In this document: positions 15,619-19,876 of the stretch, one piece after another | Layout: each line of letters opens with the position of its first letter | Position numbering within the stretch: position 1 is the stretch's first letter | NCBI GenBank assembly: GCA_944362615.1 | Contig: CALVTM010000002.1 | Span: 62,001-126,000 of the forward strand | Length of the DNA stretch: 64,000 nt | Reading direction: 5' to 3' | Origin: an uncultured Clostridia bacterium | Lineage (GTDB): Bacteria; Bacillota; Clostridia; Christensenellales; Pumilibacteraceae | Notes under the pieces: model-generated | The model's database searches: none | The model's input: only the letters and a program-made list of their open reading frames with translations | What the model was told of the DNA's origin: nothing | Program-made: the position numbers and the translations under genes

Positions 15619-16080
15619 TTAATCGAATTTAACCAGCGGTCTTACCGCAGCGATTCGCGTGTTTTCTATTTTTACTTCCTTACCGTCACATTCTATCAGC
15701 GTGTAGCCGTCCGTATGTTCCTTAAGGACACCCTCATAAGTCTTTACTCCTTTTATAGGAGCATAAAGTTTTATTTCAGCCTCTTTACCGTAATTGCGCT
15801 CATAGTCTCTCTGAGTTTTGAACGGTCTGTCCAGCCCGGGCGAAGAAACTTCAAGTACATACGGTTTTCCGCCAGTAGGATCCAACTCATCAAGTAACGG
15901 TTCTATTTCATAGTGGATGCGTTCACAGTCATCCAGGCTGATACCGTCCGGCACCTTATCTACATATATCGTTATATGCAGTTCGCCATATTCGTTACGG
16001 CGTTCCACATCTACAGTTTCATAACCAAGCTCACGGATCTTTGCATCCACCGCATCAAACACAACGTCTTTTTTTATCAT
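15619..16080 (-). CDS. rimP: Ribosome maturation factor RimP
   Basis: Assembly factor for the 30S subunit. The 153 residues have the N-terminal alpha/beta domain with DDCERIHYEIEPLLD and the motif YVLEVSSPGLDRPFK (about 86-100), and a C-terminal SH3-like domain. It is the first gene after a clear promoter and a conserved-looking hairpin leader, and heads rimP-nusA-rnpM-ylxQ-infB. Confidence 0.96.
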   Translation of the reverse strand: MIKKDVVFDAVDAKIRELGYETVDVERRNEYGELHITIYVDKVPDGISLDDCERIHYEIEPLLDELDPTGGKPYVLEVSSPGLDRPFKTQRDYERNYGKEAEIKLYAPIKGVKTYEGVLKEHTDGYTLIECDGKEVKIENTRIAAVRPLVKFD

Positions 16081-16183: not shown

Positions 16184-17680
16184 TTAATGCTGTTTTGTTA
16201 AAAATTTTGCATATGCCAGCGCGTTCGGCAACGCTCTGCGAGTATTTTTAGCGCCGTTTTTGCGCAATTCTTTTGCATCGGCAAATGTGGTCATGTCCAC
16301 AGTTTCCGGTAAAGGGATATGCAGCTTTTCGAGATAGCTTTTAAGGATATTCATATTAAAATCGTGCGGGAAAGCAGTTACCGTCCTGCCGCTCCAGAAC
16401 CGATAGAAATCAGGCAGAATCTGCTCAAAATACGGCTTACCCTTGAGATCGGAGGAAACTAACCCCACATCCCCGCGCTCCGCGTCCGTCATATTTCCGT
16501 GCGGGCATATCAGCGATGACATAGTTTCGCAAATCTTGCCGTCTTCTATGCGCACAGCAGCAATTTCAATGAGTTCACCGGGACGATATTTATTATCCGA
16601 AACCGTCATCAATGAAATTATTATGAGAGGTTCATCAGTAAGCGGTTGATCATTTTCCCCGTATAATGATGACTGTTCCAGCGATACATACTCTTTCGGA
16701 TGCACGTATCTGTATTCGGGGTCCGGAAGGCGTACGACTTTATTTATTTCAAACTCGGCTTTTTCGCAACCGGTAAAACGTCTTACGGACATCTGAAGAC
16801 TCCCGTCATTCATTCTGGAATCATAATCAGTTCTGCCTGACATTATAAAATACGAGCCGTTTTGCAAATATTTTATTGCATCTTTATTATCACTTGTCGG
16901 AAACCATACGCATCTTATTTTTCCCGTACCGTCATCCAATGTAAATGACGCATACTTACGCGTAGTTTCTCCCTTTTTTGGCCTTCGCGGTGCATATTCT
17001 CTCTCATGCAGATCAGAAAGTGAGCCGTATACGACAACATATTCAGGTTCTATACAGTCGCATATATATTTTGCCGTGCCGTCTATCTGAGCACCGCACA
17101 TCGGAGTTCTGCCCGTCGGATTTATAGCTCTTCCCTCGTTCGGCCGCTCATACGCGAATGTAGGACGATAAATACGCTCGTTAAGTGTACGCCTTATGGC
17201 ATTAAAATCCTCTTCACGCAGTTTTATATTTATGCGCACGTCTATAAACATACGCGCGTCTATATATTCTTTTAGTCTTTCGCAAAGTTTTTCCCGCTCC
17301 GCATATTCACGCACGGCAGGAGTGAACGTAAAAGTTACGGAAGGAGGATCCCCCATAAGAACGGATATATTATCACCGTCAGATGCAGACGCAACGTATG
17401 CGCTTTCCTTAAGCAGAAAATCCCTCGCACAATGAAGAAGTTCTCTGCTGCCCGTCCGCGCAGCAGAAGCATTGATATTTACATCGGCGTAAGGCGGAAA
17501 AAGAGATGCCGCCGCCTCACGAATACGTTCACGGGACTTTTCGTATTCTGCCTCGCAAGTCCTCTCATATACGGCATACAATGTCACTCTTTCGTTATCC
17601 GCATCTATTTTTGCAGATAAAAAATGAATATAATCGAACTCAGGTGCAGCTTCTGTGAATTTTTTGTTGAAATCATTCAA
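16184..17680 (-). CDS. PolC-like N-terminal protein: OB fold plus degenerate exonuclease, no polymerase domain
   Basis: A 498-residue protein at the place where Firmicutes carry full-length polC (about 1440 residues) between ispG and rimP. Residues 1-205 resemble PolC N-terminal domains. About 215-310 is an OB fold (ASFTLDDGTGKIRCVWF). About 352-498 aligns by eye with the PolC proofreading exonuclease. ExoI reads ISLMTV where DVETT is expected, so Asp is Ser356 and Glu is Met358. ExoII reads FPHDFN, with Asp replaced by Asn442. The protein ends before ExoIII. PHP, palm, fingers and C-terminal domains are absent. The start is TTG at 17680, with GGAGGAG 8 nt upstream, overlapping the ispG stop by 8 nt. 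The frame is intact and ordinary in composition, so it looks maintained rather than a decaying remnant. It may bind DNA or be a replisome accessory; this is inference. Confidence 0.75.
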   Translation of the reverse strand: MNDFNKKFTEAAPEFDYIHFLSAKIDADNERVTLYAVYERTCEAEYEKSRERIREAAASLFPPYADVNINASAARTGSRELLHCARDFLLKESAYVASASDGDNISVLMGDPPSVTFTFTPAVREYAEREKLCERLKEYIDARMFIDVRINIKLREEDFNAIRRTLNERIYRPTFAYERPNEGRAINPTGRTPMCGAQIDGTAKYICDCIEPEYVVVYGSLSDLHEREYAPRRPKKGETTRKYASFTLDDGTGKIRCVWFPTSDNKDAIKYLQNGSYFIMSGRTDYDSRMNDGSLQMSVRRFTGCEKAEFEINKVVRLPDPEYRYVHPKEYVSLEQSSLYGENDQPLTDEPLIIISLMTVSDNKYRPGELIEIAAVRIEDGKICETMSSLICPHGNMTDAERGDVGLVSSDLKGKPYFEQILPDFYRFWSGRTVTAFPHDFNMNILKSYLEKLHIPLPETVDMTTFADAKELRKNGAKNTRRALPNALAYAKFLTKQH

Positions 17681-18719
17681 CTATAAGCTCCTCCACTAAC
17701 TTTAAAAAAGTTTCTTCGGCTTCCTTTACCGGCATAGTCCTGATGACGCTTCCCTTGCGGAAGAGCACCGCTTTATCCTTTCCTCCGGCAATTCCGACAT
17801 CTGCATCCGATGCTTCTCCGGGTCCGTTCACGACACAGCCCATAATTGCTATTTTCAACGGTTTTCTTACATTTTCGGTTATCGCCCTACACCGTGTTAC
17901 AAGACTTTCAAGATCATAAAAACAACGCGCACACGTGGGGCACGAAACAACTTCCACATAGTTTTTATCCAACCCTACAGCGTGCAATATACTGCGCCCG
18001 ACTTCCACCTCACGGACGGGATCACCAGTCAAAGAAACTCTTATGGTATCGCCTATACCGTCAAGCAGTAAACTTCCTATGCCGGCGGCGGATTTTACGA
18101 TAGCGTCCTGTCCTGCACCGCTTTCAGTTATTCCGAGATGCAGCGGGTATCCGCACAGCTTGTCCAGTTTTGTATAAGCATCTACGGTAAGCCTCACATC
18201 GCTGGCTTTAACAGAAATAACGATATCAGAGAAACTTTCACGTTCAAGCAGACGTATGGTCCTTATTGCGCTTTCGGCAAGCCCGTCTGCAGTTATACCG
18301 CCGTACTTTGCCTTAATGTCTTTTTCAAGTGATCCGCCGTTTATTCCTATACGTACCGGACAGCCGTTTGCTTTGCATGCGGCGACAAGTTCCCGCACTC
18401 CTGACGATGAAGTATTTCCGGGATTAAAACGCACTTTTGCAAAACCTATATCTGCACATGCAACGGCAAGCCGATAATCAAACTGTATATCAGCTACGAG
18501 CGGCATATCGAATTTATCTATATAAGTCTTGCATGCTTCGACATCGACGGCATCGCGCACTGCTATACGTGCTATGTCACAACCGGCGTTTTTAAGCGCA
18601 TTAAGTTGCTTTATCGTCGAATTAATGTCCGCAGTATCCGTATTCGTCATAGACTGTACGGAAATCGCACTACCGCCGCCTATAGTTATATTACCTGCTC
18701 TTACTGCTCTTTTTATCAT
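17673..18719 (-). CDS. ispG: 4-hydroxy-3-methylbut-2-enyl diphosphate synthase (flavodoxin)
   Basis: Penultimate enzyme of the MEP isoprenoid pathway, a [4Fe-4S] protein. The start at 18719 gives 348 residues, has GGCGAGG upstream, and overlaps the rseP stop as ATGA. The TIM-barrel part includes SVQSMTNTDT, and the C-terminal iron-sulfur part has CPTCARC and GCVVNGPGEA with the three cluster cysteines. It is translationally coupled to rseP and to the PolC-like gene. With dxr and uppS in the same run it feeds undecaprenyl phosphate synthesis. Confidence 0.97.
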   Translation of the reverse strand: MIKRAVRAGNITIGGGSAISVQSMTNTDTADINSTIKQLNALKNAGCDIARIAVRDAVDVEACKTYIDKFDMPLVADIQFDYRLAVACADIGFAKVRFNPGNTSSSGVRELVAACKANGCPVRIGINGGSLEKDIKAKYGGITADGLAESAIRTIRLLERESFSDIVISVKASDVRLTVDAYTKLDKLCGYPLHLGITESGAGQDAIVKSAAGIGSLLLDGIGDTIRVSLTGDPVREVEVGRSILHAVGLDKNYVEVVSCPTCARCFYDLESLVTRCRAITENVRKPLKIAIMGCVVNGPGEASDADVGIAGGKDKAVLFRKGSVIRTMPVKEAEETFLKLVEELIVE

Positions 18720-19876
18720 AATATATACCTCGCCGCCATACCTATAATATCTATAACTATAACACATACAATAAGGACTATCAGTCCTATCGCATGTATC
18801 ATGCCCTCCACCTTTTTATTGATTGGTTTCCCTCTTACCCACTCTATAGCGGTAAAAACGATCCTTGCTCCGTCCAGAGCAGGAAAAGGCAACAAATTGA
18901 ATATTGCAAGATTGCTCGCTATCAGTGGCAAAAACAACAGGAAATATCTCGGGTCGCTCTGTGCATATGTCGCAATCGTTGCCACAGTTCCTACGGGTCC
19001 GGTCACATCCGTAACGGACACACCGCCCGTAAGCAGCATTCCGAAAGAACGCAGTATCAGCCATGAAAGTTCAAAAGTATACGGAAAGCTGTAACCAACC
19101 GCCTCAACAACGTTGACGCTTCTGCTTTCATAGGACAGAGTAAATCCGAATTTTTTATCTTCGCCTATCTGATGCTTGGATGAAACGATATCCAGCTCTT
19201 TTCCATCACGCTCGATCGTAAAAATATTGGCGTCATCGTTTGTTTCGGAAAATAACTCGTTTGATGACTTCAAAAAAGTTATCTTCTCTCCGTTTATCGC
19301 CGTAATCACATCCCCCACTTCAAACATGACCGCATACGGCTCTCCCGTGACAGGATCAACTGAAAGATCTGTAATAACTGGTACCGCATACCCTACAGCC
19401 AGAATATATATGAACGAAAATACAAACGCCGACAGCAGATTGAATAACGGTCCCATCAGAAGCACGATTATGCGCTTCCATGGTTTCTGTTCAAAAAACA
19501 AATGCCTGCCGGAATCAATACTTACGCTGTCTTGTTTATCCGTCTTTTCACCGGAGTTTTGTTCGTTCGAACAGGATTTTTCTGTTTTGTCAATGTCTGA
19601 TCTGCGGTTATCAAAGCTCAGACTATCATCATTTTCTTTTGCTTCCGCACCGTCATCTTCTCCGGAAAACGCACAGTATCCGCCAAGCGGCAATGCGCGC
19701 AAGGATACTTCTTCACCGGTTTTTAATCGTTTGGAAATGATTTTAGGACCAAGCCCTACGGAAAATTCATTTATACCGAATCCCAACAATTTTCCTGCCG
19801 TATAATGTCCGAGCTCGTGGATAGTTATCATCAACAGCAGAATTAAAACAGCCAGAATTATATAAAGAATTATCAT
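18716..19876 (-). CDS. rseP: Site-2 metalloprotease RseP
   Basis: Membrane zinc protease that cleaves membrane-embedded anti-sigma factors or signal peptides. The 386 residues carry HELGH (His20, Glu21, His24) in the first helix, a PDZ domain (about 165-260), and the distal LLPFPALDGARI motif completing the active site. An extra acidic, Ser/Asp/Lys-rich insert of roughly 50 residues (about 71-122), predicted disordered, lies between the first helix region and the second helix. It sits between dxr and ispG as in most Firmicutes. Confidence 0.95.
   Translation of the reverse strand: MIILYIILAVLILLLMITIHELGHYTAGKLLGFGINEFSVGLGPKIISKRLKTGEEVSLRALPLGGYCAFSGEDDGAEAKENDDSLSFDNRRSDIDKTEKSCSNEQNSGEKTDKQDSVSIDSGRHLFFEQKPWKRIIVLLMGPLFNLLSAFVFSFIYILAVGYAVPVITDLSVDPVTGEPYAVMFEVGDVITAINGEKITFLKSSNELFSETNDDANIFTIERDGKELDIVSSKHQIGEDKKFGFTLSYESRSVNVVEAVGYSFPYTFELSWLILRSFGMLLTGGVSVTDVTGPVGTVATIATYAQSDPRYFLLFLPLIASNLAIFNLLPFPALDGARIVFTAIEWVRGKPINKKVEGMIHAIGLIVLIVCVIVIDIIGMAARYIL

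What the first reader, a model, noticed from the sequence alone, without database searches (positions are those of the whole stretch)
16184..17680. Stand-alone PolC N-terminal protein with an inactivated exonuclease at the polC locus
At the conserved ispG-polC-rimP position there is a 498-residue protein that keeps PolC-like N-terminal, OB and exonuclease regions but lacks PHP and all polymerase domains. The proofreading motifs are altered: Ser356/Met358 replace Asp/Glu of ExoI, Asn442 replaces the ExoII Asp, and the chain ends before ExoIII. The frame is intact, coupled to ispG and preceded by a good ribosome-binding site, so it appears maintained. It could be a replisome accessory derived from polC, perhaps binding DNA or the clamp loader.
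Basis: partly seen in the sequence, partly recalled or inferred. Interest (0 to 1): 0.8.

Follow-up and report, generated by a model that had tools for sequence, protein, structure and literature searches.

The report
Orphaned, catalytically dead PolC proofreading module
In a large group of gut Clostridia that lost the DNA polymerase PolC, a small piece of that polymerase lives on as a separate protein, normally an intact proofreading nuclease with a tag for binding the replication clamp, and in this genus the nuclease is dead yet still strongly conserved, which suggests that it has become a structural part of the replication machine.

Summary
The ORF is real: 498 aa, minus strand, 16184-17680, overlapping ispG by 8 nt, at the conserved rseP-ispG-[polC]-rimP-nusA position. 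It descends from PolC. Its NTD-OB half matches the NTD-OB of full PolCs of the same order (hhalign 99.6%), and the model's best PDB hit is E. faecium PolC. It is not one decayed gene. Of 139 sampled genomes from 16 families of the order that show no PolC polymerase, 138 keep a stand-alone NTD-OB-Exo protein, usually of about 500-560 aa. The full-PolC and stand-alone genomes fall on two sides of one branch of the DnaE tree. Most homologues have an intact DEDDh exonuclease, and a linker with a clamp-binding-type motif (QxxLF) sits where PolC's PHP half was. The motif is kept (QSSLY type, 12/12) and the dead domain evolves under purifying selection (dN/dS about 0.06-0.21). Catalysis was also lost in two other families and in some full PolCs. 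DnaE1 keeps an intact PHP site. Best reading: a PolC-derived, clamp-tethered trans proofreader that became a non-catalytic replisome accessory here. Function is inferred, not shown.

The parts
16184..17680 (-). stand-alone PolC-derived protein, 498 aa (PolC-N, pseudo-exonuclease), TTG start, stop included
17690..17694 (-). GGAGG ribosome-binding site, 9 nt before the TTG start, inside ispG
   Evidence: sequence
17111..17680 (-). PolC N-terminal domain (residues 1-190)
   Evidence: hhalign of the stand-alone family (A2) against full-PolC NTD-OB (A4): probability 99.6, E 1.9e-23; pLDDT mostly 74-96
16763..17107 (-). PolC OB domain (residues 192-306)
   Evidence: Pfam PF01336 E 6.6e-9; VIA-align Z 14.0, 98 aligned, rmsd 1.6 to G. 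kaustophilus PolC 3f2c
16661..16675 (-). clamp-binding-type motif QSSLY (residues 336-340) in a low-confidence linker that replaces the PHP-N half of PolC
   Evidence: Q..[LMIF][FLY] in 28/31 and 34/35 active-site-intact stand-alone homologues and 12/12 of the genus; lowest pLDDT at 331-350
16187..16645 (-). DnaQ/PolC-type exonuclease domain without catalytic residues (residues 346-498)
   Evidence: PF00929 E 8e-6; Z 15.7 to E. faecium PolC Exo 9qrn, residues 344-498
16607..16615 (-). dead ExoI: Ser356-Leu357-Met358 in place of D-x-E
16397..16411 (-). DFYRF (residues 424-428), signature of the stand-alone family: Asp conserved in active and dead members, absent in full PolC
   Evidence: Asp 30/31, 34/35, 12/12 (genus), 23/23 (other dead) against 0/11 in full PolC
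16355..16357 (-). dead ExoII: Asn442 in place of Asp
16223..16240 (-). dead ExoIII: Arg481 and Asn486 in place of His and Asp
17673..18767 (-). ispG, upstream neighbour, overlaps by 8 nt
15619..16080 (-). rimP, downstream neighbour

Best explanation
This is the remnant of a dismantled PolC. SHOWN: in the lineage leading to this family and its relatives, the polymerase, both PHP halves and the C-terminal clamp motif of PolC are gone, and the NTD, OB and exonuclease modules remain as one protein at the polC locus, with a linker carrying a QxxLF motif between OB and Exo. SHOWN: most descendants keep all five DEDDh residues; in the window's genus all five are lost, while the predicted fold, the motif and strong purifying selection remain. 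INFERRED: the ancestral protein is a sliding-clamp-tethered 3'-5' proofreading exonuclease acting in trans for DnaE1, much as epsilon does in E. coli. INFERRED: in this genus proofreading has passed to the intact PHP site of DnaE1 and/or a separate 200-aa DnaQ-like enzyme present in all 14 genus genomes, and the protein stays as a non-catalytic accessory that holds the clamp (QSSLY), single-stranded DNA (OB) and possibly the clamp loader (NTD), with the pseudo-exonuclease as a docking domain.
For: Synteny rseP-ispG-X-rimP-nusA shared by stand-alone, dead and full PolC forms. NTD-OB homology to PolC. Exo of active-site-intact homologues scores best with PolC models (6.7e-51, 1.9e-54). Best PDB hit of the model is PolC 9qpc, E 8.4e-12. 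In the 218-genome survey, 138 of 139 genomes from the 16 PolC-less families keep it, and none of the 138 shows the three-match PolC pattern of PF07733 (family totals counted by hand). One branch, 100/100, separates full-PolC from stand-alone genomes on the DnaE tree. DEDDh intact in most. Dead residues SMNRN in the window protein; dead-domain dN/dS about 0.06-0.21 where dS is measurable, and it is better conserved than the NTD, 0.55 against 0.42 identity. Motif 12/12 in the genus. PHP HHDHEHCDH in every DnaE where the region was present, 40 of 41 including the window genome. DnaQ-like exo of about 190-230 aa in 14/14 genus genomes and none of that kind listed in the sister G046.
Against: No experiment. 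Position 5 of the genus's motif is Tyr, not Phe/Leu, so clamp affinity is uncertain. In the other two dead families the canonical motif is lost as well (0/23), so clamp binding is not what all dead forms retain. DnaQ is not present in every genome with a dead module: no DnaQ of that size was listed for G078, G081, G113, G148, G210 and G220. The locus lies in a translation/transcription gene cluster, so a non-replication role is possible. The model used an alignment dominated by active-site-intact homologues.
Confidence: 0.66

Rival explanations
1. Scaffold for a replacement exonuclease: the DnaQ-like enzyme took over catalysis on the genus stem, and the dead PolC-derived protein anchors that DnaQ (or DnaE1) to the clamp, so the two form a split proofreader.
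For: All 14 genus genomes carry the about 200-aa DnaQ-like exo; the two read in full (G000, G003) have intact catalytic residues; the sister genus (G046) has an intact module and no such enzyme listed. On the DnaE tree trait changes go the same way in up to 4 of 4 independent pairs, 0 opposite. A family-specific patch DFYKF is kept in dead members.
Against: Only 4 pairs (p 0.125). Six dead-module genomes in other families have no such DnaQ listed. The DnaQs of the different lineages look like different types. No physical evidence.
Confidence: 0.25
2. It left replication and works as an OB-fold RNA- or ssDNA-binding protein in the ispG/rimP/nusA operon context.
For: OB domain; NTD of a type predicted KH-like in PolC (PMC3919608); co-location with rimP, nusA and other translation genes.
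Against: That gene order is simply the ancestral polC locus, shared with full PolCs; the clamp-type motif is kept in all 12 genus members read.
Confidence: 0.12
3. The gene is decaying: loss of exonuclease residues is the first step to loss of the gene.
For: Catalytic residues lost; gene not found in G011 of the genus (86% complete assembly).
Against: Intact frames in 12 other genus genomes, one split across two contigs; dN/dS well below 1 in the dead domain; 138/139 retention across the PolC-less families, including the dead families and genomes of about 0.9 Mb.
Confidence: 0.04
4. It is still an exonuclease using altered metal ligands.
For: The predicted fold is kept.
Against: Both ExoI carboxylates, ExoII Asp and ExoIII His and Asp are all replaced (SMNRN), and within the genus several of these positions vary (S/A, M/L, N/A).
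Confidence: 0.03

Closest known systems
PolC, Gram-positive replicative DNA polymerase III alpha
   Same: NTD, OB and DnaQ-type exonuclease in the same order, same genomic position, best structural and profile matches
   Different: no PHP, polymerase, HhH or C-terminal clamp motif; Exo follows OB through a short linker with its own QxxLF motif; exonuclease dead in this genus
E. coli DNA polymerase III epsilon (DnaQ)
   Same: separate proofreading subunit of a DnaE1-type polymerase, as inferred for the intact homologues; exonuclease fold (Z 16.0 to 2gui)
   Different: origin from PolC, extra NTD and OB ahead of the exonuclease; no catalytic residues here
Mycobacterial non-canonical DnaQ acting beside the DnaE1 PHP proofreader (PMC12926913)
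   Same: an accessory DnaQ next to a DnaE1 with intact PHP site, plausible analogue of the intact homologues
   Different: not PolC-derived, catalytically active
Inactivated polymerase-family proteins (ImuB, PolB2/G2; PMC12926913)
   Same: catalytically dead enzyme part retained, presumably for a structural role
   Different: other enzyme families; there linked to translesion synthesis
Clostridial PolC without exonuclease insertion (PMC3919608)
   Same: clostridial PolC that lost a module
   Different: the reverse case: exonuclease lost, polymerase kept

Membership tests
PolC DNA polymerase | C-family polymerase core (Pol3) | tested here: not met
   no PF07733 match at this locus; only DnaE in the genome
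PolC DNA polymerase | PHP domain split by the exonuclease | tested here: not met
   no PHP segment between OB and Exo or after Exo
PolC DNA polymerase | NTD followed by OB | tested here: met
   hhalign 99.6%, E 1.9e-23 for the family profile; OB Z 14.0, rmsd 1.6
PolC DNA polymerase | C-terminal clamp-binding motif after the polymerase | tested here: not met
   absent with the polymerase; a QxxLF-type motif lies in the linker instead
DEDDh (DnaQ) proofreading exonuclease | RNase H-like exonuclease fold | tested here: met
   PF00929 over cut-off; Z 15-17 to DnaQ-family structures
DEDDh (DnaQ) proofreading exonuclease | D-E-D-H-D catalytic residues | tested here: not met
   S-M-N-R-N in the window; intact in most other stand-alone homologues
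sliding-clamp-binding protein | QL[S/D]LF / QxxLF motif (PMC12309361) in an exposed segment | tested here: inconclusive
   QSSLY in a low-pLDDT linker, Q conserved; position 5 is Tyr
sliding-clamp-binding protein | physical binding to DnaN | not testable with these tools
   needs a binding assay or complex prediction
clamp-loader (tau) binding protein | interaction of the PolC NTD with DnaX | not testable with these tools
   only a literature proposal for PolC (PMC3919608)

The most novel reading that the evidence does not exclude
A replicative polymerase was taken apart once in evolution and its proofreading module became a free, clamp-tethered subunit for a different polymerase; in at least three lineages the module then lost catalysis yet stayed nearly universal, so it is a non-catalytic replisome subunit (a pseudo-proofreader) of a kind not described before.
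Probability: 0.5. Interest if true: 0.88.

Novelty: new variant of a known kind. Interest (0 to 1): 0.77.

Why it matters
[quoted passage not shown] Here a whole group of families that would be scored 'DnaE1 only' keeps PolC's NTD-OB-Exo part as a free protein, with repeated loss of its catalysis. This offers a natural experiment on how proofreading can be moved in trans, how a two-polymerase system collapses to one, and what non-catalytic role a proofreading module has in a replisome. Pumilibacter muris and Anaerocaecibacter muris, named strains with genomes on record, carry the intact form, so the question is testable.

Tried and rejected
DnaQ replacement as the general cause of exonuclease death: in the 39 genomes of the DnaE tree it looked striking (11/11 against 3/28, Fisher 2e-7, one of the 11 having only one residue changed), but there are only 4 independent pairs (p 0.125), and the wider survey found six dead-module genomes with no DnaQ of that size listed; kept only as a rival. 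Misassembly or split gene: PF07733 finds no PolC-type polymerase elsewhere in this genome or in the other genomes with the stand-alone form. Decay: rejected by dN/dS and retention. dN/dS: many pairs are saturated in dS, so only pairs with finite dS are used. Pfam did not recognise the NTD in the eight members scanned, nor NCBIfam in the three scanned; profile-profile comparison was needed. PF00929 over 218 genomes listed only the best 150 matches, so counts of dead modules come from a second, targeted search. VIA-align rows cover mainly the exonuclease; the NTD was not searched alone as a structure. Literature searches for truncated/split PolC and for PolC in Christensenellales found nothing relevant.

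Full report
OBSERVATION. The ORF is on the minus strand, 16184-17680, 498 codons with a TTG start preceded by GGAGG, overlapping the ispG stop by 8 nt; rimP, nusA and the infB cluster follow on the same strand. Pfam gives an OB fold at 239-302 and RNase_T at 363-497; there is no PHP or polymerase. The statement that the chain ends before ExoIII is wrong: the ExoIII helix is present as NTRRALPNALAYAKFL with Arg481 for His and Asn486 for Asp. The genome (1.62 Mb, 25 contigs) has one PF07733 match, a DnaE, with a complete PHP metal site HHDHEHCDH and its own QLSMF segment (seen).

IT IS A FAMILY, NOT AN ACCIDENT. Twelve of 13 other genomes of the genus have it at 39-71% identity, none with stops inside (one is split across two contigs), and 10 of 11 other genera of the family first sampled have a homologue. 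The loci L077 and L097 name two members: Pumilibacter muris and Anaerocaecibacter muris, both Pumilibacteraceae, Clostridia. In an evenly drawn sample of 218 genomes of the order, 140 match the NTD-OB profile at E <= 1e-20. Two of these are full PolCs (frames 1438 and 1449), which leaves 138 stand-alone forms, nearly all with frames of about 490-610 aa. Counting families by hand, 139 genomes belong to families with the stand-alone form; the one without it is G147 (88% complete). None of the 138 shows the three-match pattern that a full PolC gives with PF07733, and no full-PolC genome has a stand-alone copy by this search. The two states lie on two sides of a single 100/100 branch of the DnaE tree, consistent with one dismantling; the direction is inferred from the truncated architecture.

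DESCENT FROM POLC. The gene order rseP-ispG-X-rimP-nusA is shared by intact, dead and full forms, wherever contigs reach far enough and the neighbours are recognised. The NTD-OB profile of the stand-alone family matches that of full PolCs of the same order over 287 columns, 99.6%, E 1.9e-23. The exonuclease of two intact members scores best with a PolC model. The AlphaFold model of the window protein (mean pLDDT 88.9) has E. faecium PolC as best PDB match (E 8.4e-12); its OB aligns with G. kaustophilus PolC at rmsd 1.6 over 98 residues and its exonuclease with E. faecium PolC at Z 15.7.

WHAT CHANGED WHEN IT CAME LOOSE. The PHP half that lies between OB and Exo in PolC is gone. In its place is a short linker with the motif QxxLF: 28/31 and 34/35 intact members in two sets match Q..[LMIF][FLY]. 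QxxLF is the general clamp-binding motif (PMC12309361); full PolCs carry theirs at the C-terminus, which the stand-alone protein has lost. In the model the linker is the least confident part (331-350), as expected for a flexible tether. A second novelty is an Asp in the helix before ExoII (DFYKF): 30/31 and 34/35 intact, 12/12 genus, 23/23 other dead forms, 0/11 full PolCs. It is conserved without regard to catalysis, so I read it as a candidate docking surface (inference).

LOSS OF CATALYSIS. Most members keep DEDHD. All 12 full members of this genus that were aligned have lost it, while the sister genus on the DnaE tree (G046, Anaerocaecibacter muris; 98/97) keeps it. Independently, family f17 (all sampled) and most of f20 (not genus g95) have dead modules, and so do full PolCs of f13 genus g24, with strongly diverged exonuclease regions in several f11 PolCs. 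In this genus the dead domain is under purifying selection: dN/dS about 0.06-0.21 where dS is measurable, and its mean identity (0.55) exceeds that of the NTD (0.42). The motif remains as QSSLY, QSYLY, QTSFY and the like in 12/12, with Tyr throughout at position 5. In f17 and f20 the canonical motif has gone (0/23), mostly to QxNFV.

WHO PROOFREADS. The DnaE PHP site is intact in 40 of 41 DnaE sequences read here; the one exception is a sequence that lacked the region. All 14 genus genomes also carry a separate exonuclease of about 190-230 aa (G000: 200 aa, best NCBIfam match PRK06195) that is not listed in the sister G046. The association of such an enzyme with a dead module is suggestive but not secure (and the six exceptions). 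The PolC exonuclease of B. subtilis is reported to complement DnaE3 in trans (PMC12926913), which makes trans proofreading by the intact forms plausible.

MECHANISM. Shown: origin, architecture, retention, loss of active site, selection. Inferred: intact members are clamp-tethered trans proofreaders for DnaE1; in this genus the protein persists as a non-catalytic accessory that bridges clamp, ssDNA and perhaps clamp loader (the last rests on a proposal for PolC's NTD, PMC3919608). Against it: no experiment, an unusual Tyr in the motif, and loss of the motif in the other dead families, which implies that something other than canonical clamp binding is what those lineages retain.

NOVELTY. [quoted passage not shown] I found no paper describing a stand-alone PolC NTD-OB-Exo protein, though subscription papers were not searchable. 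I call it a new variant of a known kind: the parts are known, the free PolC-derived module and its dead form are not, as far as I could search.

Noticed in passing
L058:2964-7391 (+), genome G036; L221 (G074): Full-length PolC (1476 aa in G036) in family f13 genus g24 whose integral exonuclease has lost the catalytic residues (S-R-S-T-E, S-R-T-F-E), against the published statement that the DnaQ domain of Pol III alpha is not inactivated.
   Followed up: partly
L219 (G208), L220 (G134), L222 (G168); G145:C12:10469-10750: Full-length PolC frames of 1410-1460 aa in family f11 with a strongly diverged, apparently dead exonuclease region.
   Followed up: partly
L056:3768-7760 (+), genome G034: Full PolC with a single ExoI change, FYIETTG for FDIETTG, other catalytic residues intact, and a separate 185-aa DnaQ-like enzyme in the genome.
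   Followed up: no
family f28, e.g. G063, G085, G103, G140: Very small genomes (about 0.8-1.3 Mb, 98-100% complete) keep the stand-alone PolC-derived protein with an exonuclease that scores as intact, a hint that it is hard to lose.
   Followed up: no
L153-L192, L002 (DnaE regions): DnaE of PolC-less genomes scores lower with PF07733 over a longer stretch (about 790-860 nt against about 770 nt) than DnaE of genomes with full PolC, as if small insertions arose when it became the only replicase.
   Followed up: no
L052:4128-4730 (-): The genus's 200-aa DnaQ-like exonuclease, catalytic residues intact, no obvious clamp motif, next to no replication gene.
   Followed up: partly
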